Assembly (NCBI GenBank): GCA_949825065.1
Contig: OX463849.1
Coordinates: forward strand, 620,001-684,000
DNA from: Odontocerum albicorne
Taxonomy: Eukaryota > Arthropoda > Insecta > Trichoptera > Odontoceridae
Direction: 5' to 3'
DNA: 64,000 bases
Position numbers and translations under genes: made by a program
In this document: positions 5,697 through 63,679 of the stretch, piece by piece
Layout: each line of letters begins with the position of its first letter
Position numbering within the stretch: position 1 is the stretch's first letter
The notes under the pieces: model-generated
Database searches by the model: none
Seen by the model: only the letters and a program-made list of their open reading frames with translations
What the model was told of the DNA's origin: nothing

Positions 5697-6664
5697 CTGG
5701 AATTACAAAAAATAAAAAAAACTACAATTCAGTAATTTAAAAACAAATGAAAATATTTTTATTTTCAAGGAATATTTTATATTCTAGTTCTTAATAGCAT
5801 TCTTTCAGTGCCACTGAATTGGTGATTACTAGAGGAGATGCCTCTTTACCTTGAGCCATATGAATCAGCTTCCAAGATTTAATGGTACTCGTATCATAGA
5901 GTATCAAATGATGAAATTTTGAGAAGAGCAAACTCCTGTCATATAGAGATTTTGGTGTTACATGCTCTTCTGCGTCGCTCTGGACACGTAGCTCGCATGC
6001 CTGAATAGAGACTCCTAAGAAATATTCTCTTGACTTTCGTTTATCTATAGCTTATTGAGTTTTTTTCATTCTAATATTCAATAGCTAGGTAGTAACTTGA
6101 ACCTTTCCCTTCCTGTGCTAAAAAAATGTGTGTGCCGGTGCTGTGTATTCAATATATAGTACATGTAAAAATGAGCGATTTAAAATTGAAAAAATTAGAA
6201 TATTCATAGTCAATCGCTTACATTAATTAAATTTGAAGTCAAAAGTGATAATAATTGAAATTTCATTGCTGAAAACACGTAAAAAAACATTGGCCAACTT
6301 TCACAAAACGGGCGAAGCGACCACCTCAAACGAATGCCCGCGAGCTACTAAGCGAGAGAAGTGAGCGAACTGAGATTCTATTGTATTCCCATATACCGAA
6401 GTAGAGTGAGAGTGAGACTTGAATAGCGTCGGTTCTCACTCATAGCGGTTTTTTAGAATGAATATACCTACATCACACACTGGCACACGTTTGATTGTAT
6501 TGGTGAATTTATTCCCGATTTTCACAAAATATCTCTGATGTAGCCGATAAGTGCTAATTATTATTAATATTTTTTCATTCAATGCGTAAATGTATTACGG
6601 AGGAATACCTAAAATCTGAACCCAGTATTTATAGAGATATTAAAGTTTTTAGAAGCAACGTGTA

Positions 6665-7340
6665 CTAGTTAAATAAATAAATAAATAATAGGTTTATTGA
6701 TAGCAACATAGTATGTACAGATTATATTTAAATAACACTTCTAAAACACATAAATTGCAGATAATACATCCCCTCGGCCAAGATACACCCCACCAATATA
6801 GGGCGAACCCAGCCACGGGGACACCAGATGTTTTTCAGCCCACACCCTTGAACACGTAGAACAAGAATATATAAAAAAAATAAATAGATGACAAAAAAAA
6901 AAATACATTCAAGAGAGAAGACACTAAAAGGTCCGGGCTCATCCCACAAACATTCCCCCGGCCGAGATACACCCCACCAATGTAGGGCGAGCTCGACCGC
7001 AAGTGCATCAGGGGGCTTCCATCCCACACCCCCGCATATCTAGATTAAATAATAAATAGAAAAAAGAAAAAAACAAAAACGTATGGCAGAAAACAAAATA
7101 AAAAGTAAACCCACATATACCACCTCAGGTTGACTGTCAGCAAGAGCGAGAAAAAAAAAAAAAAAAGAAAAGCCTCATCACAGAAAAGTTACACATCACA
7201 GGAAAGGAAGGGTTAAGGAAGAAATATTGAATCGGGGACAAAAATAAGCTGGGATACAAGTCTCATCTCGGGAGCTGTCTCTGAAAATCGGGGATGATTG
7301 GTCACTTAATCTTAGTGTCTTCTACCTAATGTAACTACTG
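6665..7340 (-). repeat. LINE-like 3' UTR with a duplicated segment of about 190 bp
   Basis: Starts on the plus strand with repeated AAATAAAT, the reverse-strand look of a LINE tail. Two similar blocks follow (about 6763-6860 and 6950-7045), each with GGCC(A/G)AGATACACCCCACC and a TAGGGCGA core. No reading frame has a recognisable domain. The 60-100 residue open frames across it are chance frames in the duplicated GC-rich block. Confidence 0.5.
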
Positions 7341-7529
7341 CTAACCCGTACTCCACACGTGGCGGCAAACAATAGCGGTCATAAAAATTCCCAACTCATA
7401 TTTTGTCTGGTACAAATTGTCTTCCAAATATCTTCTAATAATCAGTTCATACCTAGACTGTATTGCATTTGTGTCTTGTTAAGTTTTTCCTACGTTTTTA
7501 CGTATTTTTATTTCGCTATTTCTATTGGT

Positions 7530-7912
7530 TTTTTTTTGGCTGTCCAGAGCGAGGCTTGTCTTCGACGCTGAAATCTCCATCCTTGAAACGTCGAAACCAT
7601 TCCCTACATGATTTATCAGTTGGAGCAGCGTCACCATAAACCTCGACAAACATTCGATGGGCTTCAGCTGCACTTTTCTTCCAATGAAAGCAGAAAATTA
7701 AAATCTCCCGCAAATGCTGCTTGGTTAACACAAAATTCGACATTTTCAACACTGGACAAAACAAGGTTTTTGCATGAAACTCAAAGCGATATAAACTGAA
7801 TATTATTGGCAGATGTCTAATCTCTCTGAAACCGCCAAAATCGGCTGTCACTAAGAACCATTCATAACAGCCAGAGCCATCTTTTGGAAACGGACCGAAC
7901 TAATTAGTACTC
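7530..7912 (-). pseudogene. Truncated mariner transposase, DNA-binding part only
   Basis: The minus strand from 7743 reads MSNFVLTKQHLREILIFCF and then a KSAAEAHRMFVEVYGDAAP and WFRRFKDGDFSVEDKPRSG segment. These are the paired-like helix-turn-helix and linker of a cecropia/mellifera-type mariner. The frame ends about 65 residues in, and no DDD catalytic core follows, so this is a 5' fragment. It lies in the mRpS26 intron. Confidence 0.8.
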
Positions 7913-8451
7913 CCAATAGTAAAATCGTCTGAATTGTTTAGTTATAATTATACAAATATTAAATTATTTTGTGTTTGTAGCACATATTTTATTTTTCTTT
8001 AATATTATTTTACATTGTTAAATTAGTTTATATTAGGTATTTTTTCAAATATAGTCTTTATATCGGACATTTTTTAAGTAAAATATATCATATGGATGCA
8101 AACACATTAGGAAAGAGACGAGGTATTATTGTCCAGATTGTAAAGTAGGTCATTGTTTCCTTACTTTCATTTATCATACCAAAAGTGTTTTGATTTTTAT
8201 TTTGCAAAACCCTGTGTTGACGAACCCTGACGAGTATGATACAAATAATTGTATAAAAATAACAGACATTTTATTTTTACATGCTTTGTGAAATCTACTC
8301 TGACAAAATTAACAGTTTGAAAAATGAAGTTAAAAAAAACCCGCATATTTTAGTTACACTCATAGAAAAAACCTGAAAGTAAGGGGGTTAGAACTGAAAA
8401 TAAAGCTTAACATAAAATAAGAATTGAATTTACAAATGATCTACAAAATAC

Positions 8452-8940
8452 CTTGAACATTCTTATTTTCTCATCTGCCTCCTGTACGAATTTCTCAGAT
8501 ATTTCATCTCTGCGTGACATGATTCTTAATATCTGTTCCTCCCTCAGCTTGCCTTCTTCCTCCAGTCTTTTATTACGCGTCGCGGCAACCTCCGCATTCC
8601 ACAAGTCGTTCTCTCGCATGCACCGCTCGAACTCGTGAGCCTCCTCTTCTAAGCTCTTGGCGGAGAGAACGTTTTCCAAGGATAACCTCTCGCGAGACTG
8701 CTCGTCAAATAGAAACCTTCTGATGCTCCTGATTTGTGTCCTGTAATTGTTGTGCAATCTCGCCAGCTCCAGTTTGTCCTCTTCGGGGATCACGGGCCTC
8801 GGGGGGATTTTGAACATTTTGGATTTAGCCATCGGCATCCAGACCGGCTTCCTAATGGGCAACCGCCGGAACCTCACTGTCTGTGTGAATACTTTACATT
8901 CTGGCCCGATAAAAACTTGTATTAAGGAAGACTGAAACAT
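8452..8940 (-). CDS. mRpS26: Mitochondrial ribosomal protein mS26, exon 1
   Basis: 163 codons from ATG at 8940-8938. The product begins MFQSSLIQVF and has a basic, hydrophobic N-terminus suited to mitochondrial import. It continues with RKPVWMPMAKSKMFKIPPRP and a long charged helical region (ELARLHNNYRTQIRSIRRF to EEQILRIMSRRDEISEKF), typical of mS26. The exon ends after IRMFK with donor GTATTTTG. With exon 2 the protein is 219 residues, close to the roughly 205 of the human protein. A TTG at 8958 in the same frame would extend it, but ATG at 8940 is the sensible start. The neighbouring CycH gene is divergently placed, 1.3 kb away. Confidence 0.87.
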
Positions 8941-10248
8941 TTTCAAAAATATTTTCAATGGATAACTGTTTGACAGATTTAATCAAAATAAAAGTGAGGT
9001 TACTACCATAGACAAGAAATGTTATTATTATACTCTCAATCACACGGTTGAAACTCAAGATAAAAAACAACACATTAGTTGGAGAATATTTTATTGCGTG
9101 GTTAAGCTTATGATGTGGACGTTTCGAAATGTTGAAATTTTCATCTTCAGGGCTTGTTCGTAGCCAACTACGGACAATCCGAAAAACCTTGTCCAACTGA
9201 TACGAAGAACCGCGAAAACCTCAAAACACATTTCAAAACAACACATAATTTTAAAAAAAAAGTAACTATTCTCATACGCGGTGAGTAAATGTGCGAGTGT
9301 TATTGACTCTTCACGTGAAGTAGTGTTACTAATACGTGCGTTGACGAACCACGAGTTTTGTGTGTACTCTAGAGGTTTAAACCCGAAGGTTTGATTATGG
9401 ATGTGTATATCGTGTGATAATTGGACGTCTGAAGTATTTTAGTGGCTTTGTGGTAATTTAGATAACGTTTTGAAAGGGTACTGGGTGTTTAGTATAACTG
9501 TCCTAAGATCACAGTTCGTTATTGTACGACAGGCAATAATACTTGCATTTTTGTTCAGTGTGTTCTAGAATTAAAAGTTAAGTTAAGAATTAAAACTTTT
9601 TAACGAGACTGCGATCTATTTTAATGAATTTTTTGGATGCCAACAGTAATAAAATTCTGTTTATTATTGGGAATTAAACTCGAATAAATAAATTTTTATA
9701 AAATAATGTAATTTTATGTTACAATATTCAATGGAAACGTGATGTAGTTTTATATCATTTTCATAATTTTCTTAGAATATTAAATTTCATGTGCAAGACA
9801 ATTTAATTATGAGATTCTTGAAAAAATATCTACTTTGTATAGGTTTGCAAAGAACAGAATATTTTAAAAGCACATTTTAACCATAAAATACCTACTAAAC
9901 GAGCTTGATATTTTTGCATACCTATCTTTTGATCGACCTATCTTTTTTTGATATTTCAAAGAAAAAAGTGTTTGTGGATTGGATCCTTTGAATAATTATG
10001 TTAATTTATTATATTGATGATATAATGTATATACGATCTAATATGATGTAAATGGCTTGGCCCCAATACTTTTTTGTGGAAGATCATAAACATCACGAGA
10101 GGTAGGGCAATACTTATATTATGACAGCTGTCAAAGTTTAGTTTAGTTTCGGTTAAATATTATTTGAATGCAGTTGATTTTTTGTAGGAATATTCGTGAA
10201 TAGTGAATTAGACAATTTGTCGAGTAACTTTTTAAGTTAGATATTAAA
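8941..10248. other. Intergenic region between mRpS26 and CycH
   Basis: Must contain the divergent promoters of both genes, but I see no clear TATA box. 9060-9260 has a patch resembling repeat sequence (TTTCGAAATGTTGAAATTTT). The word GACAGCTGTC at 10122-10131 is a palindrome about 120 bases before the CycH start. No further gene seen. Confidence 0.5.
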
Positions 10249-11208
10249 ATGTTTTCGCAAAGTTCTCAGATAAAGTTCTGGACATTTGCCGATGAATCCG
10301 ATTTGGTTCGTTTAAGGGAAAAACATAACCTCCAGTTTGTTCATAAACACGGTGCACATATGGATGAAAATGTTAAGTATCATTATTTCCTCTCCGCTGA
10401 GGAAGAACGGCTCTTGCTAAAACAGTACGAACTACAACTGAAAGAGTTTTGCAAACGATTTAATCCGCCGATGCCGAAATGTGTTATCGGAACTGCTTTT
10501 CACTATTTCAAACGGTTCTACCTTTACAATTCAGCGATGGATTACCACCCGAAGGAGATATTGGCAACCTGCGTTTATCTGTCGTGCAAAGTGGAAGAGT
10601 TCAACGTGTCGATGAGTCAGTTTGTGGCGAACATAAAAGGTGATAGGGACAAGGCTTCCGACATTATACTAAATAACGAACTTTTATTGATGCAACAATT
10701 ACGCTATCACCTCACTGTTCATAATCCTTTCAGGCCGATCGAAGGATTCTTAATTGATATTAAAACGAGGTGCGCCCTTTCGAATCCCGAGAGACTTAGG
10801 CAAGGCGTCGACGAGTTTCTAGAAAAAACGTTCCTGACAGACGCGTGCCTGTTGTACGCTCCTTCCCAGATCGCTCTAGCAGCCGTGCTGCACGCGGCTA
10901 GCAAGGAACAGGAGAACCTGGATAGCTACGTAACAGACACGCTGTTTCGAGACGCCGGGCAAGACAAGCTGGCCATCCTCATCGAGGCAGTGAGGAAGAT
11001 TCGCTCTATGGTGAAGGGCGTGGAGTATCCACCCAAGGACCGGGTCAAGGTCCTGGAGAAGAAGTTGGAGAAGTGCAGAAATCAGGAAAATAATCCCGAC
11101 AGCGATATCTACAAACAGAGATTGAGAGAAGCTTTGGAAGCGGAAGATGATATCAGCTTCTCTGCCCTGAACACTTCTGTGGAAATGGGTATCAGCCACC
11201 TGCCCTGA
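10249..11208 (+). CDS. CycH: Cyclin H, regulatory subunit of CDK7 (CAK/TFIIH)
   Basis: Intact 319-residue, single-exon gene. Cyclin H binds CDK7 and MAT1 to form the CDK-activating kinase, free or as part of TFIIH, acting in the nucleus on CDKs and the RNA polymerase II tail. The start MFSQSSQIKFWTF is the characteristic N-terminus (human MYHNSSQKRHWTF). The N-terminal cyclin box spans about residues 55-150, with KRFYLYNS and EILATCVYLSCKVEEFNVS. The second cyclin fold follows to about 285 (YAPSQIALAAVLHAAS). Residues 280-305 are a charged C-terminal helix. Human cyclin H has 323 residues. The codon third positions become markedly GC-richer after about 10800, and the 3' UTR begins with a C-rich tract (11232-11290). 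No poly(A) tail or target duplication suggests a retrocopy. Confidence 0.96.
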   Translation: MFSQSSQIKFWTFADESDLVRLREKHNLQFVHKHGAHMDENVKYHYFLSAEEERLLLKQYELQLKEFCKRFNPPMPKCVIGTAFHYFKRFYLYNSAMDYHPKEILATCVYLSCKVEEFNVSMSQFVANIKGDRDKASDIILNNELLLMQQLRYHLTVHNPFRPIEGFLIDIKTRCALSNPERLRQGVDEFLEKTFLTDACLLYAPSQIALAAVLHAASKEQENLDSYVTDTLFRDAGQDKLAILIEAVRKIRSMVKGVEYPPKDRVKVLEKKLEKCRNQENNPDSDIYKQRLREALEAEDDISFSALNTSVEMGISHLP

Positions 11209-12474: not shown

Positions 12475-13450
12475 CCTCATTGGCAGCCCTCAACTTCTCA
12501 GTAAATTCAACACTGACTTACTCCCTCCAATTACTTGATGGCCCTATCATACCATTACATAAAATCGTTAAAAACCTAAGAGTGTTAATGGATAACACTC
12601 TCTCATGGCGAGATCAAATAAATGAAGTAAGCGAAAGGATCTTCAGCCTTCATCGTGTTGCAAAGATTCCTGCTTACTAAAACCAAAATTTTACTCGTAC
12701 AATCTCTGCTCTTTCCGATTTTCGACTATGCGGATGTCTGTTATTTGAATATTACAAAGGAATAGCTGGACAAATTACAGCGTCTTCAAATGTTTATCTA
12801 AGTTTTATTTTTAACCTAAGAAAGAATGATTATATAACTTCATACCAGAAGGTTCTGAACTGGTTGAACGTAAGAAATAGGCGCCAAATTCACATACTAT
12901 CTCTATTGTATTATATTCTTAACTGTCCCGCCGCCCCCTCTTATCTCGTCGAAAATTTTCAGCATCTTTCCGATCATGGACTAGCGCTATGACTACGAAA
13001 CAAAGATTGTTTATTGGCCTTTCCAGTTCACTGCTATTATTTTTTTACATCGTCCTTTACTGTCCATGCAGTGAGACTCTGGAATCAATTTCAAACCAAT
13101 GTTAGACATCCTCCGCCCTAGGCATGCATTAAGAAGCGACTGAAAAAACTTAATTTTTAGTTAGTAATATGACGTGTTTCATTCCTGATCTTTCCTCTCC
13201 ACCATCCTTTCTTTTCCTTTGATTGATATCTCACTTTATATGAAAAGGAATGTTCGGGTTATTGTCCGTCTTTGTGGGGTTTGTGGGTTCACGTATATGT
13301 GCATGGATTTCGTGTGGATGGATAGTCATTTGAGTGTTTTTTGCGACCATGTAACTTGCTTTATTTACTTTTGTCTGGTTGGTTGGAAGAGATTGCCGCC
13401 TGGCAATAAGCCCGCCAGATTGTATTTGAAATAAAAGTGTTAAATAAATA
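12475..13450 (+). mobile_element. Jockey-like LINE (family B), 3' part with complete tail
   Basis: Begins in the post-catalytic part of the reverse transcriptase (KNLRVLMDNTLSWRDQINEV, then LVQSLLFPIFDYADVCY) and continues with LLYYILNCPAAPSYL and VRLWNQFQTNV. It ends with a 3' UTR whose last 70 bases contain GAGATTGCCGCCTGGCAATA and AAATAAAAGTGTTAAATAAA. The same coding part recurs on the minus strand at 46791-47374. The last 50 bases recur as the tail of the SINE family. Broken by stops. Confidence 0.75.
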
Positions 13451-17028: not shown

Positions 17029-17029
17029 G

Positions 17030-17898
17030 ATACATCTTTCAAGATATTATGCTTAATCATACTAATACAGAACAAAAATAACAACACAAGACTTATAAAA
17101 TATAACTTAAAAAATAATAAAAAATTTTAAATAGCATCTCTCTCAAGGGGATGTTATAGGATGAATTACAAAAAAAAAATTTAACTAACAAAAAAATACT
17201 TTAACTATTAAAAACAATACATTAACATCCCCGCCCCGCCCCAATCAAGATCTTAGATTGAGAAAATGCTGGAGAAGAACCACTTGAACTGGACAATATC
17301 TACATTAAAAATATCCACCAAACCATGTATGGAGTTACCAATTGTCGTATTCTCACAGTGCAACTGTAGTTTATAATTTGCTATTGACGCATTTGAATCG
17401 TAAAAGGTTCTGAATATTTCTAGCAGGAGTGTGAACAGCAAATAGAGCCAGTATATCGAAGCTATTAACCATATCGTGAATATCCTTATACAGAAACATC
17501 AAATAGAATGTAATCTTTGTTTCATATAGTTTAAAAAGGTGTTTGTAATTCAACAAGAGACCGTAGTCAAGTATGTTTGGTGGGATGCTGAAACAAAAAT
17601 TAATATGACCTTTTCAGTTGTGCTGGAATGGATAAGATAGTTAGGTAACCAAATTGTCTACTAATACCCCAATATACTTCTTATGGTACTAGTGATGAGT
17701 AACAGCAATGAACTAGCAGTGAAGGTATTCTCCTGAAAGCTTCGCTGACTGTTAAGATGAATCTCGACAACTTATAGATACGACTAGATAAATTATTCTA
17801 CAGGAAATAAAACGTGCAAAGGTTTTGTAGTACGAAAATAGTTTCAAAGACAGAAAACATTTTAAATGTGTTTATTCATAGTTGATAGTGTATATATA
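17030..17898. other. AT-rich stretch without recognised genes
   Basis: A-rich runs near 17100-17220 and only short chance frames. No domain, RNA gene or transposon end recognised. Confidence 0.5.
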
Positions 17899-19210
17899 CA
17901 AGGGCGGTTCAATAAGTACCCGTGTTAGGAATGAAGATGTAAATTTTTTCAAAAACAAATTATTTTTCAACATAGTTCCCTTTTAGGGATAATCACTTTT
18001 TCCAACATCCCTGCCATTTTTTTAACCCCTCCAAAAAATAGGAATTGTCGAACTCTGCAAAATACGCTTCTGTCTCGACGATGACGTCCTCATTTGACAA
18101 ATGTAATGCAAATTTTTAATGCAAATTTTTTTTCCTGCGAGCCATTTCTTCATATTTGGGAATAAGAAGAAATTGCAGGGAGCCAGGTTGGGCAAATACG
18201 GGGGGTGCGGCAGTAATTCATAACGCAATTCATGCAGTTTGGCGGCAACAACTCCGGATAAATGTGCTGGTGCATTGTCGTGGTGAAACAGCACTTTCTT
18301 CTTCGCCAAATGGGGCTGTTTTTCCTTCAATTCCTTGTCAAAGTGATCCAATAACTCACTGTAGTATTGTCCTGTGATTGTTTTTCCTTTTTTTAAGAAG
18401 TCCATGAGTATTACGCTCTTCGCATCCCAAAAAATTGTCACCATAACTTTTCCAGCCGATGGAATCGTCTTCGCCTTCTTTGGAGCTGATCTACCGGAAG
18501 TAACCTATTGTTTTGATTGTTGTTTGGTTTTCGGTGCATGATGATGAATCCTGGTCTCATTGACGGTGACAACTCGACGAAAAAACTCCTTCGGATCGCG
18601 CTTAAATTGCTCCAAACACAGCTTCGAAGTTGAAAGCCGCATGCGCTTGTTGTCCACCATAAGCAATTGCGGCACCCATCGTGCCGACAACTTTTTCATC
18701 GCCAACTTATCATGTAAAATATTAATTGCCATTCCTGTCGACCCACCTATGGCCTCTGCTACTTCGTGCACTTTCGTTCGACGATCAGCGAGAATCATGT
18801 CGTGGACTTTTTCTATGATTTCCTCCGTAACCACATCTGCTGGGCATCCTGGAATCCTCATCAAAAACGGATGTTCGACCATGTTTAAATTCGTTGAACC
18901 AATATCTAACTGTTATCATTGATGGAAAAAGGTCCCCATAAACAGCATCCAATTTCGCTTTTATCTCCTCACACATTTTTCCATCCTAAAGCAAAAAGCG
19001 AATCACTGAACGATACTGCGCTTTCTCCATTGTAGCGAAAACCACGTTGCACTGCTTACTGCAATGACTGTCAAATAAAAACTAACCTATGAATCAGTGT
19101 TAAATTTGTTTTTGGCGTCGTTTAACAGATGGCAACAAACTATGGTAACAGCAACTTGTCTTAGCAACACCACCTGTCGTCAAACAAGGGTACTTATTGA
19201 ACCGCCCTCG
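17899..19210 (-). mobile_element. Mariner element, 1312 bp, near-complete, CGAG-type ends
   Basis: TA on both sides (17897-17898, 19211-19212). The right end, read inward, begins CGAGGGCGGTTCAATAAGTA; the left end differs by one base (CAAGGG...). The minus strand encodes a DD34D transposase in three frames: RYWFNEFKHGRTSVFDEDS, then EEIIEKVHDMILADRRTKV, then VMVTIFWDAKSVI with LFHHDNAPAHLS. The first Asp position reads VTVNETRIHHH (Asp to Asn). The second, HHDNAPAH, is intact. The third reads LAPCNFFLFP (Asp to Asn). Two frameshifts or stops break it. Its CGAG terminus fits the TA-CTCG-TA scars found throughout the window. Confidence 0.93.
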
Positions 19211-19212
19211 TA

Positions 19213-27910: not shown

Positions 27911-28882
27911 AAGGAAAAGAAGACCTTTACTCCTGGGGATTTTTAATTTACAATAAATAAAATATTTGCAATACAACAAATATAAAATCAGTAAAGTACA
28001 TGAATTCATTAATCTACCAATAAAAAACCACATTAGATACATTATCTTCATGAAGAGGAGAAACAATATTTAAAAAATTGCCTTGAATAGGTTTTATTTT
28101 TATTTAAAAGAACACTTATTTAATAAATAATACCAAGAATTAAAATATCAATTACCAGTGTTCATATCATGAGCAGTTGTCTCATATGAATATCAGCAGG
28201 TCATTGAAAATGTTATATATTATATGCAATGTATGGAAAAATATAAAACACTCGTTCTTCAGTCAATTCAGCCACCAGGAGGAAGAGGATCCTCCGCTCT
28301 GACAGTGTCAAACTAAATATGGCCGCATCCGAGTCAGCTACCGCGTTGTCCTCTCGGCATATTCTTACTACCGTACTATACGACTATAAGGCGAAGTTTT
28401 TATTTAAAAAGGCGACACAAATAGGGGGGTCGCCTTATATTCGAATTTAATTTTTCATAATATTATAATGGTAAGGGAAATGTTTTTTTGTCCAAAAATC
28501 AGATAAAAAATAGAGGTCACCTTATAATCAGGGTCGCCCTATAATCGAGCCAATAAGGTACTGGATTATAAAAACCGTAGCTACTCTGTAGGTAGATCTA
28601 AATGTACTCGTAGCTACTCTGAAGGTAGACATCAATATCAAATATATCCATTGCATCAATATTTTTTTGTTTTCTTGCTTTTTGTAAACTATTAATTTTT
28701 CATTATTATAAAAAAGCCAATTTGTTAGATTTTCTTTATGTTAAATCTTGGGTTCGGTTCCTAATTGAGTAGAGCCTTAATTTTAATAAAGCGCTATTGA
28801 GATGAATCGACACACTATCTAATCAAATTTAAATTAAATTTTAGTAAAAATAATAAATAGTAAGCATGTGCGTGCGACTGAC
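27911..28882 (-). other. Region downstream of the Akh exon; intron or intergenic
   Basis: The remaining Akh exon(s) should lie here or further left on the minus strand, but I could not identify a convincing short C-terminal exon. 28370-28560 has two blocks with GTCGCCTTATAATC-like words in inverse orientation that may be a small MITE. 28575-28630 repeats GTAGCTACTCTG. Confidence 0.4.
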
Positions 28883-32948: not shown

Positions 32949-33515
32949 CAGAGCCGCGTTTGCTAACAGGCAAACCTAGGCATTTCTCCTAGGGAAATGT
33001 CCCTTGTCCTAGGGACCTAGGCATTTGCCTAGGAGCGTCGAAAGTTTCATTATACGAGTACATTGGTTATAAAAGTAAATAATATGTACACTAACGATTT
33101 TGATGAATGCTTTATAGAAAAATGTATTCACTTCAGTTCATAATAACAATTTAATCATAACCACGACTGGTTAATACAGCTTAGCAAACTAAAAATAATA
33201 TCGTACTTGATTCAAATATTTATAATATTTTAATTATTCATACCATTAATAAACTGTTCCGCGGAACAAAGTTTTTAATTACTAAGCAAAAAAGCATTAG
33301 CCATGTTATCAAAAGTCTCACAATATTTCAATGACATCAAAGCTACAATACATTTGCGGAGAAGAAAGCAATACGTAAACTGTAGGGGTTTGTTGTGTGG
33401 CGCAAAATATGGTACATCTTCCGAAACGGAAAGGGTAAGTGTTTTTTTTTAAATGTATTGGGAAGGGTGTAAATTGCAAACAGCCTAGGGGCGCTGTGTA
33501 TACAAATCGGCACTG
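32949..33515. mobile_element. Non-autonomous hAT-like element, 567 bp
   Basis: Ends CAGAGCCGCGTTTG and CAAATCGGCACTG (inverted: CAGTGCCGATTTG), typical hAT termini. Flanked by 8-bp duplications CTCATTTG (32941-32948) and CTCATTAG (33516-33523), 7 of 8 matching. Several CCTAGG words lie at both ends (32980-33030, 33483). No transposase inside. Confidence 0.7.
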
Positions 33516-34475: not shown

Positions 34476-34557
34476 TAACTCAGCGCTGATACGAGTATTT
34501 GGTACATAACCATACAATTTATTTTTTGCACTGTTTTAACTTGAATAGTTGAGTGTA

Positions 34558-40269: not shown

Positions 40270-40856
40270 TAAGAAACAGGATCTGCAACGCCAAAAGCTC
40301 TATCATAATACCACGCCATATTGAATCAATTTAAAGAGAAATAGGTGATTAAAAACTAATGAAGATATTAAACTGAATTCACATATACTATACATTCTTT
40401 TACGATTCTCTCCAAAAATTCATTTTAAAATAACATATACTCGTACAACAAATGTGATGTGACTGGCTCGGCTCTGCTCTTACAGCTTTACATTCAAATT
40501 GACTTAACGCCGGGGAAGTCCGCTGGAAGTTGGCCCATCAGATGGCAATAAAATGTTATACTGGCGGTATCTCCGATCTGCAAAAGTATATTCAAGGTGA
40601 ATAAACAAGATTTGAGTGGTGATAAAAAACTCATTAAAGAGTGGTAGAGAATGTCGCAAATCGACCTGTTATTACGGAAATAAGATAACCATTGCCATTC
40701 TGTTTCACCTCCAATCTGGAAGACTCTGAAGAAAATAGAGAAAAGGACGATCGTCGATAAATAGCGGTCCCGTCGGACGGCGGAGTGTGACGTAAAAAAA
40801 AACAGGGATCTTACGGGCACCCGTCGGTGGGGCTGCCTGGGTTGTCTCTACATTGG
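40270..40856. other. Stretch without recognised genes
   Basis: Mixed-composition DNA with only short chance frames. One TACTCGTA octamer lies at 40438. Confidence 0.45.
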
Positions 40857-44240: not shown

Positions 44241-44739
44241 AGATATTATATTTAATGGTTGGCGAGCCATAAAAAAAACATTGCCACCGGGGGCATTACC
44301 GTCTGCTGTCACCGTGGTGTCACGCTGCGCGCAATGGAAGCCATCAAGTGTCGAGAGGTGACTCACGCGGATTATCAGAACTCAGCCCTGACAAGTCCTG
44401 ACGGCCGATATTCTTCAAAAATCTATTATACAAACAGTGACACCATTACATGAAGTAGTCATTGGAAGGATCCAGTTCGAATTGATAGATTTTCTAACAT
44501 ACGAGTACAAGTGGAGATTTAAATGAACGTTTAACTTTTGTAAATATATAGTATAGCACCACGCCGCCTCTCTGTTGGGCTAGGTAGAGAGGAGATATCG
44601 CCAGACTTCTTATCGTGACATACCTGCGTCACCTTTTCTACAACCATACATCTCCTCATACAGCTTTTACGATTTTTCCAACTTTTTACATTTCTTTCTT
44701 TCAATATACCATACGTGAAGTATGGTCTGTGGAGTGTAT
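44241..44739. other. Stretch without recognised genes
   Basis: Only short frames. One TACGAGTA octamer is at 44500. Confidence 0.4.
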
Positions 44740-45725: not shown

Positions 45726-46260
45726 GTTAACCCTTTGACAGTCAGTGACGCACGATATACGTCATGAAAACAATTATTCCACACATCCGTGACGTACAGT
45801 TTACGTCATTAATTTTTAGGGGCTGTTTTAAAATAATATTGTTTTGTAACACATTAAATAATAGTAAAAATACGTCTAGAGTAAACAGCAAAGCAAAACG
45901 TAATTGTTAATTGGAAAAGGGAAACATAATTATATCATAGTTTATTCTAATTCACTGTTCAGAGTTACCGACATTTTCAATAGAGCAGTGTCAACACAAT
46001 AGTACGTTTGACATTTTTCTAAAAACACTCGTTTGTTCACGTTTTTTTGTTACTTTTCTTTCATTTCGAAACATTTTTTGTGGCTGATATAATTGTAATG
46101 TGCTCGGTTTGGAAAAACGTTATTGTTAGTATTGTGATAAACCTAACTTTTTCAACAATCCGAACATTACTTACTCGTACAATACCAATACAAACAGGTT
46201 TTTCATGTTCGGATTGTTGTTTCGTAAGAAGATAATATTTCAAATAGTATTAACTAAACT
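45726..46260. other. AT-rich stretch starting with a piggyBac-like end
   Basis: TTAACCCTTTGACAGTCAGT at 45728 looks like a TTAA target plus a piggyBac-type terminus (CCCTTTGAC), followed by two ACGTCAT-type repeats. No matching right end was found, so only a solo end is suggested. Two TACTCGTA/TACGAGTA octamers are near its right side. Confidence 0.35.
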
Positions 46261-46261: not shown

Positions 46262-46781
46262 TGCCATTCGGGAAGTACGAGTATCTTCTCAGATAGTGGA
46301 AGAGTTAACAGGGATATCGAACGACGTGAAGCGATAGGAAATCGTCAATGGAACACTAAAACATATAAATTCGAACCGGACAGTATCAAAATCTTCCAAG
46401 ATGATAGCCACAACAGTATTTTAGTACCGACTTTGATGCGTGGGAGGAAAACTTGGTCGTCGAAATTGACTGAGAGAAGCCGAACGAACTCTGAAAAATT
46501 GCGTGCACTGAGAAGAACACACGGGGTGACTATATATGACAGAATACGTAATGAAGTAATTAGGGACGAATGTGAACTTATTGTTGATGGTGTGTTCAAT
46601 CAGATGAAGAAGATCCCTCTGAAATGGCTCGGGCAAGTTAAGTAAGACGAGGAAGAGTCCGTAGAGATGGTTTGGGCATCTAGAACAAACGAATGAAGAA
46701 ATACTAACAAAACAAATATACAGTGCAAATGTGAGTGGAAGGCGTTGAAGAGAAAGACCGAGGAATGTATGCTTGGATCAG
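46262..46781 (+). mobile_element. LINE family A, longest open copy, 5' part
   Basis: An almost continuous frame (46270-46645): IFSDSGRVNRDIERREAIGN, PDSIKIFQDDSHNSILVPTL, RALRRTHGVTIYDRIRNEVI and then PLKWLGQVK. It is interrupted by LINE B at 46791 and resumes at 47384. Confidence 0.8.
46276..46283. other. TACGAGTA scar in LINE family A
   Basis: Here GAAGTACGAGTATCTTCTCA; at 33849 the paralogue has TTAGTATTTTTTCA. TA has become TACGAGTA. Confidence 0.65.
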
Positions 46782-48413: not shown

Positions 48414-48956
48414 ATTTTGATGCAATTACGAACCGAAGTTATGACGAGTGTTGAAGGTACCTGGCTCTTAACTGTGCTCTTATCTGGCCATCAGAGTGTG
48501 GGCTTCTTTCTGTTCTGCTGCAACTGGAACTAGAACTGGAAAGATCTCGACAGAGAAATGTAACCTGAATGGTAACGGTTCTCTGCACGCACAATGACGC
48601 AACATTCATTCTATCAGACGCGAGTGAAGCAGAAGCAACCAGGCACAGGTTACCTTAATACGAGTAGATGGGACGCAGGCAAATTGCTTGGGAAAATAGC
48701 TAGTTTTAATCAGGCCTAAAGGTACAATATGAAAATATATTTCAAGACACTCGTGGGGAGGGGGAGGGGTACCAAATCGCACCAACTTGACGAATGAAAT
48801 ATCAAAATCGAAACCAGGCAAATATCTACAAAAATTGTTGAAAAACGAGGCAAATTTTGAATGCGCTAAAATCAATTTAGTATACGCGATTCGCTCACTT
48901 TATTTAGAAGAATCTTTCAGAACTGTTCCGAAAGAAAAACTTATTTATTTATCAAA
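48414..48956. other. Unassigned stretch with one protein-like frame
   Basis: Plus-strand frame 48787-48955 reads TNEISKSKPGKYLQKLLKNE, then FECAKINLVYAIRSLYLEES. It looks more like protein than random AT-rich DNA, but I recognise no family. It is cut off by the LINE at 48957. Confidence 0.25.
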
Positions 48957-50560: not shown

Positions 50561-50876
50561 ATATAAATAAATATCCAGAGATGAATTGCGACGCAAAATT
50601 TCCCAAGATCAATATTTCGAGAAGAATAACTCTCGCTCCCTCTTTCTTTTTATGCCCCTTTCTTTATCTTGGACACGAGATACCGAAATGGTCGCCAACC
50701 ACATGAATACAATAACTCGATATAATGTATCGGCAACAAGTGCACACTCGTCACTAATCTGCACCCGAGGCTTCGAGAGGAACAGATTCACTCCGATAAT
50801 TCGGAGATACGGTTTGATTTTATTTGCATTTTGTGATAGTCCACTGGTCACGTACAGTTTTCACTTCATCGATGTA

Positions 50877-51830
50877 CTAGGTAAGTCCAGAAAGTAAGTG
50901 TACTGAATTTTTGTAGGTTACAAATTTTTTTTATAACCAAAAAAATTACGTGGTTACCGTAGTACATATGTAAGCTATTTTTCGACATAGTCGCCAATCC
51001 TCTCAATGCAGGTGGTGAAGCGGGGTATCAACTTTTTGATGCCTTCCTCGAAGTAGTTTCCCGCCAACCCCTCCGTCCACTTCCCACCTTCTCCTTTACC
51101 TCCTCGTCGGTTGAAAACCTTTTTCCACCCATGTGCAGTTTCAGGGAGGTAAAGATATAGTAATCTGAAGGTGCTAGGTCAGGGGAATGCGCGGGATGGT
51201 TCAGGACATCCCATTTAAACGAGGCGAGCAGTTCCTTCGTGGCGTTGGCCGTGTGTGGTCTGGCATTGTCGTGCAGCAGGCAGACTCCCTTTGTCAGCAT
51301 GCCTTTCCTCTTGTTTTGAATCACCCTCCGCAATTTTTTTAGGGTCTCACAGTATCTTGCAGAGTTGATGGCCTCCCCTTGAGGCATATATTCAATTAAA
51401 ATTATGCCTTGACAGTCCCACAACATTTTCGTCAATTTCGTCAGTCACAATTGAAGGTCTTCCGCTTCTCTGATCATCATGCACAGACGTACGACCGTTT
51501 TTAAACTCGCGACACCACTTGTACACACTCGTACGATTCATAGCTTTATCACCATATGCAGTTTTCACCTCATTATAAACCTCAACCGGAGGTTTTCCCT
51601 TCCAAACGAGATAGCGGATGACGCCGCGTATTTCGCACTTGGCGGGATATTGGATTTACATTTTTCACGAAACGTGTTGTCGCGTCGACACTTCTCAACG
51701 TACTGACCTCGAAACGGTCTCGTTGCGGAGGGGAAGGGTCAGGCTACACGGAAGTGTAGCCAACATGTCGAAAAATAAAATTCATCCGGTCGTGAGAGCC
51801 TCAGTACACTTACTTTCTGGATACACCTCG
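50877..51830 (-). mobile_element. Mariner element, 954 bp, internally deleted, CGAG-type end
   Basis: TA on both sides (50875-50876, 51831-51832). Right end inward: CGAGGTGTATCCAGAAAGTA; left end: CTAGGTAAGTCCAGAAAGTA. The catalytic half on the minus strand (51435-51028) reads LWDCQGIILIEYMPQG, LLHDNARPHTANATKELL with the second Asp, and HSPDLAPSDYYIFTSL with the third Asp, both intact. The first-Asp block is absent, apparently by deletion between the linker remnants (near 51600-51450, DDQRSGRPSI) and the core. Non-functional. Confidence 0.92.
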
Positions 51831-51832
51831 TA

Positions 51833-54575: not shown

Positions 54576-54800
54576 GACGATCTCCGTGGCCTAGTTGGTG
54601 AGATGTTTTTCTTCCAAGCCGGAGGTTACGGGTTCGATTCCCGTTGGAACCCAGATTTTTTAAAAAAATAATTCCATTCTGATTTTCACTTAACGCTTCT
54701 TTAACACCTTTCCGGTCGGTTGGATGATATTGCAACATGGCAATAAGCCCACCAGGCTGTGCTGTATATAACGAAAGTGTAATACAATACTCGTACACAA
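54576..54800 (+). mobile_element. tRNA-derived SINE, best-preserved copy
   Basis: Head GATCTCCGTGGCCTAGTTGG (A box) and GGTTACGGGTTCGATTCCCG (B box), then CCCAGATTTTTT, a body with TTTTCACTTAACG, and the tail CGGTTGGATGATATTGCAAC, ATGGCAATAAGCCCACCAGG. This is the clearest evidence that the family derives from a tRNA and that its 3' part copies LINE family B. Confidence 0.85.
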
Positions 54801-56074: not shown

Positions 56075-56082
56075 TACGAGTA
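56075..56082. other. TACGAGTA scar in the first unit of the 39-bp array
   Basis: First unit AATAATATACGAGTAATACT against later units AATAATATAATACT. Confidence 0.7.
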
Positions 56083-58580: not shown

Positions 58581-58584
58581 TTAA

Positions 58585-59165
58585 ACGTTAATAAGGATGT
58601 TGCACATCTGATAACACTCATGAGTTCGTTCGGAAATCACGCCGAGTGAACCGCAAACAAAGAAATGTAAAATGAGATGCTGCGACATAAGAAGGTCTCA
58701 ACCCCTGATCCAAGTACGGAGTATACCTATGCCGTCTCCTGGAAGAAAGAAGAATTCACCTATTTTACACATCATCCATTGGCTGCATTTAACTGATTTT
58801 AATTTACGGGCTGTTTTCGTGAAGTCGATTATCCGCGTAAATGGATATAAATCTGAAAATGTATAATAAAATGGATATAATCCGAAAATTGCATGGTATA
58901 TTGTACAATATATAAAATGGATATAATCCGAAAAATATGTACGAGTATATTGTATGTAGATCACGCGCTAATATTCCTTTATTTATTTCATCCACGGCCC
59001 TTGTCGACTTCAAAATAATATAATGTATTTTTATGCAATTAAACAATAAAATTGACAGTTGACAATAATACAAATTATACGGTATAAAACAGGGCTGTTC
59101 AACCGTTTTGTATACTTTTCTTGACGGGCGACGTCGTAATCTACCAGTGTACAGATAAAAATATG
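58585..59165. other. Stretch without recognised genes
   Basis: 58865-58950 has a diverged tandem duplication of AAATGGATATAATCCGAAAA. One copy contains TACGAGTA where the other has TA. Confidence 0.45.
58940..58947. other. TACGAGTA scar in a local duplication
   Basis: CCGAAAAATATGTACGAGTA followed by TATTGTA, against CCGAAAATTGCATGGTATAT in the sister copy. Confidence 0.55.
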
Positions 59166-59170
59166 TACAA

Positions 59171-59428
59171 AACATTGGCCTAACTACTCGTATAAGAACA
59201 CGTAACTCCATATGTGTAACTTTACACCTGAGAGAAAATACGTCACAGTTTGTCCTATGTAAACTTAAACATTGTTTTTTAAATATATCTGATTGATAAC
59301 GACATTGTTTTTTTATCAATCAGATATATTTAAAAAAACAAATTTTTAGTTTACAAAGGACGAACTGTGACGTTTTTTCTCTCTCCTGTAAAGTTACTCA
59401 TACGGAGTTACGTGTTCTTATAGTTAGG
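59171..59428. mobile_element. Hairpin (foldback) element, about 258 bp
   Basis: Two arms of about 120-130 bp pair almost completely. Arm 1 has AAGAACACGTAACTCC, CGTCACAGTTTGTCCTATGT, AAATATATCTGATTGATAA; arm 2 is its complement. The loop is only about 20 bases. Arm 1 carries an extra CTCGTA at 59187-59192 that arm 2 lacks. Confidence 0.85.
59185..59192. other. TACTCGTA scar in one hairpin arm
   Basis: Arm 1 reads CCTAACTACTCGTATAAGAA; the complement of arm 2 reads CCTAACTATAAGAA. TA has become TACTCGTA. Consistent with a transposon excision footprint. Confidence 0.7.
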
Positions 59429-59554
59429 TCAACGAAAATTATAATCAGGTATAATAATTAAATAGATCTGATTATAATATATAGATTCATGGTTGTTCAA
59501 TACTTATATATGGTAGATTCCCGCGTGAAGGAACTACACAGGTCAATTGCTGGT

Positions 59555-60480
59555 ATACAAATGTCGAATGGGAATGTGTGCGGATTGTTGTGAGCAGATG
59601 ACATGGTAACATAGTGTTGGCGGAGAGTGAATATATTGCAGAGTTTGTAAAGTAAATTGTATAAGACACGCGAAGAGAAAGGTGAATATTGCGATATCCA
59701 AAGTAACGGTGATAGAATTTTTTTCAATGAAAAGTAAATGAGACATATGGGTGAATTATGAAAAATCGAAGCAAGTTGAGAAACTCTGTTATTTGGGTAG
59801 TATTTTCACAGATGATGAAATATTTAAGAGGGATATCGAATGACGTGTAGCGATAGGAAACAAAGGTAATGGGGCACTAAAACATATAACATATAAACTC
59901 GTATACTCGAATCGGACAGTATCAAAATATGGTAAGACGCTAGTCAGCAATAGTATTTTGGTGGCAACTTTGATGAAAACCAACGAAGCGTGGACGTGGA
60001 AAAAACAATGAGATGGTTGGAATAAATGGTGTAGAAACGCGTGTATTGAGAAGAATACACGGAATGACAATGTATGAAAGAATACGAAATGAAGTGATAG
60101 GGTATGAATGTGAAGTTAAGGCTGATGTGTTGAGTAAGATGGAGAAGAACACGTTGATATGGTTTGTGCGTGTGGAACGAATGAATGAAGATAGACTAAC
60201 AAAATAAATATACTCGTACAGTGCAAATGTGTCAGTACAAATATATAATACACGCTTTATCTTCGTGCGAGGCATTACTTTACTTTTTATAATCGAATGT
60301 GGGTACATAACATATTATTATATTTGTTGGATCAAGTGAGTGATATAATGAAAGAAGGAAACGAAGACAGTCAGAGAATACGTAAAAGTTGTATGAGAAA
60401 GTTGTGTCGAGATAGGAAAGTATGGTGCTCTGTCTTCTCTGCCTAGCCCGAGAAGAAAATTACGCGATGGTATGTATTTG
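59555..60480 (+). mobile_element. LINE family A, longest copy (about 0.9 kb)
   Basis: Starts just before the broken catalytic box (ADD at 59597) and runs through HMGEL-KIEAS, DIE-RVAIGN and SKYGKTLVSNSILVATLM. At 60013-60207 it has an open frame with RVLRRIHGMTMYERIRNEVI and KMEKNTLIWFVRVERMNED. The 3' terminus is at 60422-60478. Useful as the reference copy for the derived minisatellites. Confidence 0.8.
60211..60218. other. TACTCGTA scar in LINE family A
   Basis: AATATACTCGTACAGTGCAA here, AATATACAGTGCAAATG at 46715-46731. Confidence 0.7.
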
Positions 60481-60774
60481 TATAATAATTTAATATTAAT
60501 TATGAACAAAAAGTAATACATTATATAATATTTAAATTTACAAATGATCACATTATGATGAAAAAATACCAGGCACACAATAAATGCTTGTGTTAATAAA
60601 AGTATTTTGTTATTGTTCATTTTTTATTCGTTAAATATCTAAAATATCTCAGTCGGCATTTCACGTTTAAAACGCAACTTAATTCACTTTTTCAGTTCGT
60701 CGTATTTTTTATTAGAATCGACTATAATAATATTTTTTGTACATACACATATCTATATATAGTACGTGTATGCA

Positions 60775-61032
60775 ATGGAAGAATTTTTTTTTATAAAAGC
60801 ATGCCGCGATCGATTGGCAGATCGCTATCGACTGGTCGGACATCCCTGGCACGTGGGATCGTGTCTAGCGGACAAAAGTATTGTTGAAAATTTTAAATCG
60901 CGTAATTTTTTAAATAATAAAAAGTACTCGCACATCGGTCTGGTCTCCATTGCCGGAATATTATTTTATATAATGTTCCATCGCTTATTTTTACGTCATG
61001 GAAAAAATTGTTATTTTAAAGAAAATAAATGA
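60775..61032 (+). CDS. Hypothetical 85-residue frame with a possible membrane segment
   Basis: ATG at 60775. The product starts MEEFFFIKACRDRLADRYRL and includes GHPWHVGSCLADKSIVENFK and a hydrophobic stretch SHIGLVSIAGILFYIMFHRL (about residues 52-71). Composition of 60800-60880 is less AT-rich than its surroundings. No family recognised, no splice or promoter evidence. It could be an exon, a degraded transposon frame or chance. Confidence 0.25.
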   Translation: MEEFFFIKACRDRLADRYRLVGHPWHVGSCLADKSIVENFKSRNFLNNKKYSHIGLVSIAGILFYIMFHRLFLRHGKNCYFKENK

Positions 61033-61035
61033 TGA

Positions 61036-61158
61036 TTTTTGTAATGTCTCTGAAGTTGTGGGTGGTTTTGTAATGCCCCTGAAGTTGTGGGTGGTTTTGT
61101 AATGTCCCTGAAGTTGTGGGTGGTTGTGTAATGTCCCTGAAGTCGTGGGTGGTTTTGA
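61036..61158. repeat. Tandem repeat, 29-bp unit, four copies
   Basis: Unit TTTTGTAATGTCCCTGAAGT and TGTGGGTGG. Confidence 0.88.
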
Positions 61159-61189
61159 GAAATTATTGTAAATAATCTTAAATGTCACT

Positions 61190-61272
61190 GAAGCTGGTTG
61201 GCTAGAAGAAATTGCTCTATATCAAAAAGTCCGCCTGCTCTACGTGTTTAACTATGTACAGAAAATAATAAT
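61190..61272 (+). mobile_element. SINE/LINE-B tail remnant
   Basis: GGTTGGCTAGAAGAAATTGC and CCGCCTGCTCTACGTG-TTAA resemble the shared tail; then an A-rich end. Confidence 0.45.
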
Positions 61273-61739
61273 AAAAAGTAAAAATATTTTTTGAGGAATC
61301 ATTGAAAATAATTCAATATATGATTTAGAAAATATAATAAAGTCACAATATGTAAATAGAAACTATAAGAAATAAATACAATTAATAATTCTGAGAACTG
61401 AGAGAGGTCAGAGATAAAATAAAACTGCTAAAAAATCTTATAAAGCATATTCCCATTAAAATTTACATACTTTAAATTTGAAAAAAAAAACAAGAATTTA
61501 TATAGTAGTATTTTGTAGCACTTGGTAGCTACTGAGTGTTCCGAGAAACGACAATATTTTGGCAGTTATGAATACTTAACGTCAATAGCTACCATAATAA
61601 ATACACCCAGATGCTAAGCAAGTGCGCTAACCGTTAGGCCACAGCGCTGGAATCATTATTTTGAGGAGAGCTCTTTTATCATCTAATGAAAAAAATATAA
61701 TCAGTAAGTCATAGAGGATAAAGTACTCGTATGTATTTC
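61273..61739. other. Stretch without genes; tRNA-like fragment
   Basis: 61611-61655 minus strand shows GTGGCCTAACGGTTAGCGCA, an A-box-like piece of a tRNA-derived repeat. Nothing else recognised. Confidence 0.4.
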
Positions 61740-61945
61740 CGACCGCCGTGGCCTAGTAGGTAAGACAAGACGCCTGTTTCCGGGGACTGTAGGTTCTATT
61801 CCCGCTGCTACCTATTATTTTTAAAAGGATTCCAATCTGGCATTCACTTAAGGCCTTTTTGATATATGTACTCGTATATCTGATTGATTGACGGAGTTTG
61901 CCATATGGTAATAAACCCGTCAGGTTGCACTGTACGCAGTTCAGT
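61740..61945 (+). mobile_element. tRNA-derived SINE copy
   Basis: Head CGCCGTGGCCTAGTAGGTAA, B-box region TAGGTTCTATTCCCGCTGC, then the body, a TACTCGTA octamer at 61869, and the tail GCCATATGGTAATAAACCCG. Confidence 0.75.
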
Positions 61946-62790
61946 CTGATCCCATCACCACGCACGTTGTTATGGGAGACAAAATAAGTTCCCATCGAGC
62001 GCGATCTACATTAAAAGTGAAATTAATAGTAGTGACAACGGACTTATAGACGGACGTTGTACTGTACATATTACAACAAAAGTGTAACCCTCAATATATT
62101 CGAATTGTTCATTCGGATATATTGAAGAGCGTGGCCGGGAGACTACATTGTCTCAGCCTTATTTATAGATTCTTCGGGTTTAGAATCAATCGAGTAAGCG
62201 CGGAACTTCTAGTTCTTCATCGCACGTGAAGAAACAAGAGTCTGCCAGACGTTAACTGTTACCAGACGATATCTTTTACCAAATTGGGTGTTTTTTTTTA
62301 AATATTTTTTAGGATTCCATTGGGATTCGAACCTAACGTCTAATCTAGATTACGGAGGTCGTTGAAGTGCAACACAATAAAACAGTGTCGATAAAGATAC
62401 GAATAATATGACCAGAAATTATGTACGTAGAACTTGCAGGGTTGATTTACGTTTGGATTGTTTAAGGTTTCTCTACACCTACGGGTAAGGAAAGGGTGTA
62501 TCGCGTGGGAAATGCCAAAATATCCTTTGACATAAGTTTATCTGAACATATGCAGATTCGGGAAAGTGCCTAATCTAATGACCACAGCCACTACCTTCGT
62601 ATCTTTACACTAACTTTTTTTTTTGTTACATTTTTAATCTGTCATTAGCGAGTTCGAGTCCCAAGCTGAAGCGCCCTTGAGGAGAGTTTACTCTCTAAAC
62701 GGCGTTGTATAAATTGTAATTTTATTTTTACTGACGTGACTGGCCCACACTAGATAAGCGCGAGTACACGCTTCACTATCCGGAGCCTTG
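61946..62790. other. Unassigned stretch with an inverted SINE head
   Basis: 62315-62372 on the minus strand reads CGACCTCCGTAATCTAGATT and GTTAGGTTCGAATCCCAATG, a SINE head. 62095-62130 has a short palindrome around ATTCGAAT/ATTCGGATATATTGA. No gene seen. Confidence 0.45.
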
Positions 62791-62794
62791 ACCG

Positions 62795-62977
62795 ATGTCG
62801 GCTCAAGGCAGGAGGTCCACCGTCTTGGATGTGCAGCTTGTATGGTGTCTGGTACTCGCCGCTTGCGTCACCGCGGCCTCGAGGTCCGCCGACCGACCGC
62901 TGCCCCTCCATCTTCGCCGATTCGTCGCCGATTTTTATCCATATCGACTGTTAAATAGCTTCTCTAAGCCGCGCTGA
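62795..62977 (+). CDS. Hypothetical 60-residue secreted-type frame in a GC-rich island
   Basis: MSAQGRRSTVLDVQLVWCLV then LAACVTAASRSADRPLPLHL and RRFVADFYPYRLLNSFSKPR. Residues 12-28 resemble a signal sequence with a cleavable TAA/S site. The island (62740-63180) stands out from AT-rich surroundings, and a good donor (CAAGGTACAA at 63171) lies downstream, though out of this frame. It may be a 5' exon, an upstream frame in a 5' UTR, or chance. No family recognised. Confidence 0.3.
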   Translation: MSAQGRRSTVLDVQLVWCLVLAACVTAASRSADRPLPLHLRRFVADFYPYRLLNSFSKPR

Positions 62978-63679
62978 GCGGTGATCTGCCCATCGGTGAA
63001 GAAGGAACCGGTCGTGCCGTGCCGTGAAGCTGTCACCTGTCATTTGAGCAAATCCTTGTGATAATATTCTCCGATCCATTCTATACACACTCCCTCCCAG
63101 TGCTACGAGTAGTGCTTGCCTGTTCGTCTGTCGATCTTCGCGCTGTCTTTTCGGAAGCTGTTATCATCCGCAAGGTACAACTACAATCACCCACTATAGT
63201 GTCTCAGTGTACAAAAACGTTTCGTCGATGTTTAAAAAAAAAATCTATGTGAATTTTCTATACAAATAACAACTTAATTGTTGAAGAAGCCTAAATATTT
63301 AATTGTCACAAGTTGTCTAATTGAATTAGTAAAATAAATATCGTGAAACCATTTACAAGTATATATTAGAATCATTTATATATCCAGTGTCATATGATAA
63401 CCATGTTTTTTTATAGAAACTTGTCTCCTTTCACGATTAAATCGATTTCACATAGGCATCATTAAGTATTGTAAAAACAGCCATGTATTGTAATCCCAAA
63501 ACAGTGTCGTAAATAAAAACACTTATTGTTTGTTTTAAGTGTTTTGTTTTAAGTGTTTTCAAAAACACGTTTAATTGATGTTTTTTTAAATATATTCTAT
63601 GTGAATTTTATATAAAAATAGACAACTTATTGTTTGATAAAGTCAACATATTAATTGATAGCAGGTTGTCTAATTGTCA
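62978..63679. other. GC-rich island end, then AT-rich DNA
   Basis: To about 63180 the GC-rich island continues, with one TACGAGTA at 63114 and a donor-like GGTACAA. 63230-63680 has two diverged copies of a TTTTTAAA...TATGTGAATTTT...GACAACTTA block (about 63228-63300 and 63580-63670). No gene recognised. Confidence 0.4.

What the first reader, a model, noticed from the sequence alone, without database searches (positions are those of the whole stretch)
5886..63121. TACTCGTA/TACGAGTA is strongly over-represented and behaves as a 6-bp insertion at TA: probable mariner excision scars
By reading I count 19 exact occurrences (starts 5886, 12692, 14760, 28605, 33053, 34490, 40438, 44500, 46172, 46276, 48659, 54788, 56075, 58940, 59185, 60211, 61724, 61869, 63114). 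Base composition near 65% AT predicts about 2-3 on both strands. Five sites have a paralogue in the window with plain TA at the same point: 46276 against 33850 and 60211 against 46715 (LINE A), 59185 against the other hairpin arm, 56075 against later array units, 58940 against its sister copy. Each time TA became TA-CTCG-TA or TA-CGAG-TA. Two mariners here (17899-19210, 50877-51830) have an end starting CGAG next to TA. Known mariner/Tc1 footprints keep 2-3 terminal bases between the TA copies; four would be an unusual overhang. One site (12692) may be native LINE sequence.
Basis: partly seen in the sequence, partly recalled or inferred. Interest (0 to 1): 0.78.

Follow-up and report, generated by a model that had tools for sequence, protein, structure and literature searches.

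The report
Genome-wide transposon excision scars
An eight-letter DNA word scattered through a moth-like genome behaves as the small scar left when a cut-and-paste jumping gene departs, so that the element's history seems to survive mainly as scars and not as copies.

Summary
TACTCGTA occurs 19 times in the window (1.7 expected), in 19 different contexts. In the window's own genome (1.287 Gb, Lepidoptera by cyclin H) it occurs 381,502 times against 30,151 for the word read backwards: about 351,000 extra, one per 3.7 kb. Where paralogues exist, most non-array sites are 6-bp insertions at a plain TA. The flanks without the insertion form a palindromic ATA-TA-TAT target, as for Tc1/mariner integration. 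TAs inside scars were hit again at the ordinary rate, also in opposite orientation (290 seen, 309 expected). One-mismatch versions show no excess, so the scars look young. Best reading: excision footprints of a Tc1/mariner element with CGAG ends cut 4 nt inside, the six-bp size reported for Minos. No young CGAG-ended donor was found. The footprint type is known; its number and the missing donor are new.

The parts
5886..5893 (+). scar TACTCGTA
   Evidence: paralogue L011 has plain TA, 90% over 60 bp
12692..12699 (+). octamer, probably NOT a scar: native LINE sequence
   Evidence: same position TACTCGTA in L004 and TGCTCGTA in L015
14760..14767 (+). octamer, probable scar
   Evidence: no paralogue found in the loci held
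28605..28612 (+). octamer, probable scar
   Evidence: no paralogue found in the loci held
33053..33060 (-). octamer, probable scar
   Evidence: no paralogue found in the loci held
34490..34497 (-). octamer, probable scar
   Evidence: no paralogue found in the loci held
40438..40445 (+). octamer, probable scar
   Evidence: no paralogue found in the loci held
44500..44507 (-). octamer, probable scar
   Evidence: no paralogue found in the loci held
46172..46179 (+). octamer, probable scar
   Evidence: no paralogue found in the loci held
46276..46283 (-). scar in a LINE-like repeat
   Evidence: 2 of 2 paralogues found have plain TA (window 59781, L020)
48659..48666 (-). octamer, probable scar
   Evidence: no paralogue found in the loci held
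54788..54795 (+). octamer, probable scar
   Evidence: one weak match only (L022, 71%)
56075..56082 (-). scar in the edge unit of a tandem array
   Evidence: 4 of 4 other units listed have plain TA
58940..58947 (-). octamer, probable scar
59185..59192 (+). scar in one arm of a hairpin
   Evidence: other arm has plain TA, 26 of 30 bases
60211..60218 (+). scar in a LINE-like repeat
   Evidence: 12 paralogues found with the empty-site query, none with the insertion, 9 with exact TA
61724..61731 (+). octamer, probable scar
   Evidence: no paralogue found in the loci held
61869..61876 (+). octamer, probable scar
   Evidence: paralogues align poorly here
   Evidence: no paralogue found in the loci held
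17897..19212 (-). old mariner copy (called marY here), ends CAAGGGCGG.. and CGAGGGCGG..; other copies have CGAG at both ends; possible but unproven source
50875..51832 (-). mariner fragment (called marX here), ends CTAGG.. and CGAGG..; less likely source

Best explanation
TACTCGTA/TACGAGTA is the footprint left when a Tc1/mariner-superfamily transposon with ends TA-CGAG...CTCG-TA is cut out. Inferred steps: the transposase cuts the 3' ends exactly and the 5' ends four nucleotides inside; both chromosome ends keep a 3' overhang CGAG; the outer C-G pairs anneal and the two inner mismatches are resolved to one strand, leaving TA-CGAG-TA or TA-CTCG-TA. Shown here: 6-bp insertions at TA where paralogues allow the test, a palindromic target preference, repeated use of the same TAs, about 351,000 extra copies genome-wide, and no detectable decay. 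The source element is not identified and must be rare relative to its scars.
For: Enrichment and distinct contexts. Relatives with plain TA: window 60211, 46276, 5886, 56075, 59185; L013:3852 (95% over 82 bp) and L020:3161 (98% over 97 bp). In one search, 15 of 40 octamer sites with a spanning paralogue were empty-only against 24 of 849 other TANNNNTA sites (the 15 include weak alignments; the 24 filled octamer sites are 22 array units and two copies of the native LINE). Target palindrome in 54 distinct contexts: T at -1 5 of 54, A at +1 5 of 54, background T before TA 0.33, P = 1e-4 and 6e-5. Opposite-orientation double scars TACGAGTACTCGTA: 290 places, 0 for the reversed control, 309 expected if a TA inside a scar is an ordinary target; slippage does not make them. 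Among the 12 TA-N4-TA words shown as most enriched, it is the one far above expectation by distinct contexts (54 distinct, 5.4 expected). Minos is stated to leave a characteristic six-bp footprint (PMC3386967, passage).
Against: No donor found: TACGAG outside the octamer is not in excess (43 seen, about 58 expected in 204 kb, by subtraction). Best genome match to Minos transposase by E-value is 34% identical, the closest piece 43% over 140 residues; the three copies of the top group that I fetched have CACT ends. Published cuts for SB, mariner and ISY100 are 2-3 nt inside (PMC7827188, PMC2170065; passages). Mixed repair products TACGCGTA and TACTAGTA are not clearly enriched (2 and 4 seen, 1.7 and 2.0 expected), so mismatch resolution must be one-stranded. 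Thirteen of the 18 presumed window scars have no confirmed empty relative. If sites with both empty and filled relatives are counted as empty, one search gives 16 of 40 against 143 of 849, a smaller contrast.
Confidence: 0.85

Rival explanations
1. A narrower version of the best explanation: the scars come from the CGAG-ended mariner family of 17897-19212 (marY), or a young subfamily of it or of marX, cutting four nucleotides inside instead of the usual three.
For: marY has CGAGGGCGGTTCAATAAG at both ends in 4 copies, which were fetched because both ends matched; 83 exact ends in the genome. marX may once have had CGAG at both ends.
Against: The four paired marY copies are 83-90% identical and their longest frames are 95-205 codons, while the octamer shows no decay; 3-nt scar TACGATA not enriched. 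Of 150 mariner matches reported (of 46,985 first-look candidates) I fetched 7, chosen for long frames, and saw no CGAG ends; ends were found in 5 of the 7.
Confidence: 0.25
2. The 6-bp insertions are made on the way in, not out: abortive integration in which only the element tip is captured at TA.
For: No donors found; insertion at TA with an integration-type palindrome.
Against: I know of no such process for this superfamily (recall, not searched); known footprints explain the data without it.
Confidence: 0.07
3. The octamer is a functional or repeat-borne motif (regulatory site, satellite unit, LINE segment).
For: Some copies lie in arrays that carry it in many units (L001, L012, L016, L020) and one in what looks like native LINE sequence (12692).
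Against: Distinct flanks at all 19 window sites; relatives with plain TA; overlapping double copies at the rate of independent hits.
Confidence: 0.03
4. Assembly or library artefact that adds CTCGTA at TA.
For: None beyond the large number.
Against: Octamer is shared by units of diverged arrays and varies with them, for example TGCGAGTA in L001 and L003; target palindrome.
Confidence: 0.02

Closest known systems
Minos (Drosophila hydei, Tc1-like) excision footprint
   Same: A characteristic six-bp footprint is stated in PMC3386967 (passage, citing Arca 1997, which is not held). That Minos ends begin CGAG and leave ACGAGT/ACTCGT is recalled, not seen in any call.
   Different: In this genome the best Minos match by E-value is 34% identical and the closest piece 43% over 140 residues, among 118 scored candidates; here the scars number in the hundreds of thousands.
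mariner elements with CGAG ends (marY, marX in the window)
   Same: TA target, CGAG at one or both ends.
   Different: The mariner cut is given as three nucleotides inside (PMC7827188, passage); marY copies look older than the scars, marX copies lack CGAG at one end.
Sleeping Beauty and Tc1/Tc3 footprints
   Same: Overhang sequence flanked by the duplicated target after end joining (PMC3878927, passages).
   Different: 2 or 3 nt; TACAGTA-type scars are not enriched here (24 seen, 34 expected).
Excisions catalogued in rice (PMC4423477, passages)
   Same: Insertions and excisions of DNA transposons studied across a genome.
   Different: Found by comparing two species (1,821 polymorphisms examined by hand, 487 loci), not as an over-represented word of one genome.

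Membership tests
Tc1/mariner excision footprint | Insertion lies between two copies of the TA target | tested here: met
   Relatives with a single TA at 5 of 18 presumed window scars and at L013:3852 and L020:3161; not testable at the other 13
Tc1/mariner excision footprint | Target site is a palindromic, AT-rich TA context | tested here: met
   54 contexts
Tc1/mariner excision footprint | Inserted bases equal the tip of a resident element | tested here: inconclusive
   CGAG tips exist (marY both ends, marX one end) but no young donor was found
Tc1/mariner excision footprint | Site seen with the element in place in a sister allele or copy | tested here: inconclusive
   Among relatives in the loci held I saw empty and scarred states, no element in place
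Minos | Six-bp footprint (4 nt plus TA) | tested here: met
   6-bp insertion; Minos value from PMC3386967 (passage)
Minos | Minos-like transposase with CGAG ends in the genome | tested here: not met
   Eight of the matches fetched: three have CACT ends; in the other five the TACGAG sites belong to a nested marX or are absent, and the ends of the element may lie outside the stretches. Search for the Minos end itself did not complete
mariner (DD34D) with known 3-nt cut | 3-nt footprint from CGA ends | tested here: not met
   TACGATA 14 seen, 30 expected

The most novel reading that the evidence does not exclude
A low-copy, long-active, nomadic Tc1/mariner element with a 4-nt cut has left hundreds of thousands of 6-bp scars in one moth lineage within the last few percent of sequence divergence, so that its scars outnumber its surviving copies many times over. 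Scars, not copies, are the main record of its activity, and such elements would be invisible to ordinary repeat annotation.
Probability: 0.4. Interest if true: 0.8.

Novelty: new variant of a known kind. Interest (0 to 1): 0.66.

Why it matters
If right, one genome holds a countable record of about 350,000 transposon departures (fewer events if arrays copied some), comparable between relatives. That would make excision rates, target choice and repair outcome measurable over evolutionary time, and would show that transposon activity can be badly underestimated when only surviving copies are counted. It would also be a steady source of 6-bp insertions in that lineage. In nine answered full-text searches, of which 45, 107 and 137 asked about excision footprints genome-wide or in Lepidoptera and 11 about the words TACTCGTA, TACGAGTA, ACTCGT and ACGAGT, I saw no title or abstract that describes this; I saw listings and, for some papers, passages, and most subscription papers are not held.

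Tried and rejected
Close Minos donor: not among the scored matches (118 of 31,385 first-look candidates scored; the recalled query is 96% identical to the D. hydei entry). Tc1-like element L023-L025: 95-98% identical copies, but ends CACT. Minos-like duplications on C43: nested marX, no other TACGAG in the stretches fetched. Mariners with long frames (L039-L045, 7 of 150 matches reported): four show TCAGGTCTG ends, L041 aligns with them, L045 has a TTAGGTTG end (read by eye), L039's ends were not found. A 69-bp hairpin with TACGAG/CTCGTA ends at L018:7122-7190 had only short weak matches in the loci then held. The first paralogue script used too strict a gap rule (6-bp gap in 1 of 32 octamer sites, 0 of 799 controls) and was replaced. 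The one-mismatch control is imperfect, since the neighbours of the reversed word are other words. One search queried with the empty form only, so it finds empty relatives more easily; one search used both forms.
Full report
Observation. All 19 octamers are in the window; the last starts at 63104. Shuffles give 1.70 on average and at most 6. Among octamers with at least six occurrences in different flanks it is the most over-represented of the window (19 of 19 distinct, 12.2-fold).

Genome scale. The window is C17:620001-684000 of a genome of 1,287,057,991 bases. Its cyclin H is closest to Lepidoptera among named entries. The octamer occurs 190,749 + 190,753 times; the same letters read backwards 15,070 + 15,081 times. 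The excess is 351,351, or 0.27 per kb. In 14 stretches of 10 kb, of 20 requested, there are 58 octamers and 1 reversed word; counts per stretch run from 0 to 15, the highest including an array. Window plus these stretches: 76 or 77 octamers (one search drops one near an edge), 54 in distinct contexts, 5.4 expected.

It is an insertion at TA. For 60211 the empty-site query finds 12 relatives that span the point; none has the insertion and 9 read exactly TA; one more match, 46 bp in L021, aligned better to the filled form with a gap. L013:3852 and L020:3161 have relatives, 95% and 98% identical, that lack exactly these six bases. 46276, 5886, 56075 and 59185 have plain-TA relatives. No support was found for 58940, and 12692 looks like native LINE sequence. 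In a wider test, 40 octamer sites had a spanning paralogue: 15 empty-only, 24 filled, 1 both; for 849 other TANNNNTA sites: 24 empty-only, 689 filled, 119 both, 17 unclear. The 24 filled octamer sites are units of arrays (22) and the LINE (2). Several of the 15 are weak alignments or lie in simple repeats, the loci include L001-L008, which were fetched for double scars, and many of the 119 controls lie in TA runs.

It has the target preference of an integrating Tc1/mariner element. In 54 distinct contexts the flanks mirror each other: A 0.59, T 0.56 and A 0.52 at -1, -2 and -3; T 0.54, A 0.50 and T 0.52 at +1, +2 and +3. T at -1 and A at +1 are each seen 5 of 54 times against about 0.33 (P = 1e-4 and 6e-5). 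I see no reason for a functional motif or slippage to give this.

TAs inside scars were used again. The same-orientation double TACTCGTACTCGTA occurs 415 + 520 times (57 + 5 for the reversed control), 309 per strand expected; arrays inflate this. The opposite-orientation double TACGAGTACTCGTA, which slippage or tandem duplication of one scar does not make, occurs at 290 places against 0 for the control and 309 expected if the second TA is an ordinary target (the number of TAs is estimated from the 140-kb sample). Six of the 290 lie in one array on C3. The other opposite-orientation word did not complete.

The scars look young. The 24 one-mismatch neighbours sum to 147 seen against 141 expected in 204 kb (values, my addition). 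Genome-wide, words with exactly one mismatch number 841,879, against 960,081 for the reversed word. If the mean divergence were 8%, which the marY identities suggest as an upper value for that family, about 50 extra neighbours would be expected in the sample (my arithmetic). I take a few percent as the upper limit; this is an inference with an imperfect baseline.

The source. The words that would be left by 2- and 3-nt cuts with these or common Tc1 tips, and by a 4-nt cut with CACT tips, are not clearly enriched: TACGTA 40 (45 expected), TACGATA 14 (30), TACAGTA 24 (34), TACACTTA 14 (11.6). So a 4-nt cut with CGAG ends is needed. Minos is the described element with a six-bp footprint (PMC3386967, passage). 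Its transposase finds a best match of 34% by E-value and at most 43% over 140 residues; the three copies fetched of the top group have CACT ends. Seven of 150 reported mariner matches were fetched and showed no CGAG ends. TACGAG outside the octamer is not in excess (43 against about 58), so intact donors must be few compared with scars. The donor is unresolved.

Mechanism (inferred). Cleavage four nucleotides inside the 5' ends, annealing of CGAG overhangs by their outer C-G pairs, and one-stranded mismatch resolution. The last point follows from the lack of mixed products: TACGCGTA 2 (1.7 expected) and TACTAGTA 4 (2.0). A small population of elements moving for a long time would suffice: scars accumulate with each departure while copy number stays low.

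Novelty. The footprint type is known. About 351,000 of them in one genome, young, with their source so far unseen, is not described in the titles and abstracts that my searches listed.

Noticed in passing
L023-L025 (G000 C37, C17, C9): Tc1-like element of 1.62 kb with 34-bp CACTRGCGGTC ends, copies 95-98% identical; transposase frame long, with an intron-like stretch near Minos residue 254 (stops there; L024 has one further stop).
   Followed up: partly
L026-L029 (G000 C43:6.57-6.66 Mb): Diverged 3-kb duplications with a Minos-like transposase and a nested marX mariner; C43 is a short chromosome (15.6 Mb) and could be W (inference).
   Followed up: partly
L001; G000 C1:51271-51608 and C1:59263-59666: Octamers at regular spacing (45, 66 and 99 bp), as in tandem arrays that copied a scar from unit to unit.
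   Followed up: no
L018:7122-7190: Isolated 69-bp imperfect hairpin with TACGAG at one end and CTCGTA at the other, a possible tiny CGAG-ended element.
   Followed up: partly
window 8407-8982 (-) and 10228-11208 (+): Host genes: mitochondrial ribosomal protein S26 and cyclin H by Pfam.
   Followed up: no
window 2077-2982 (+): piggyBac-type transposase (DDE_Tnp_1_7); the frame at 3089-3613 looks like its continuation but was not scanned.
   Followed up: no
L040-L044: Mariner with TCAGGTCTG ends and long open frames, copies 91-94% identical.
   Followed up: no
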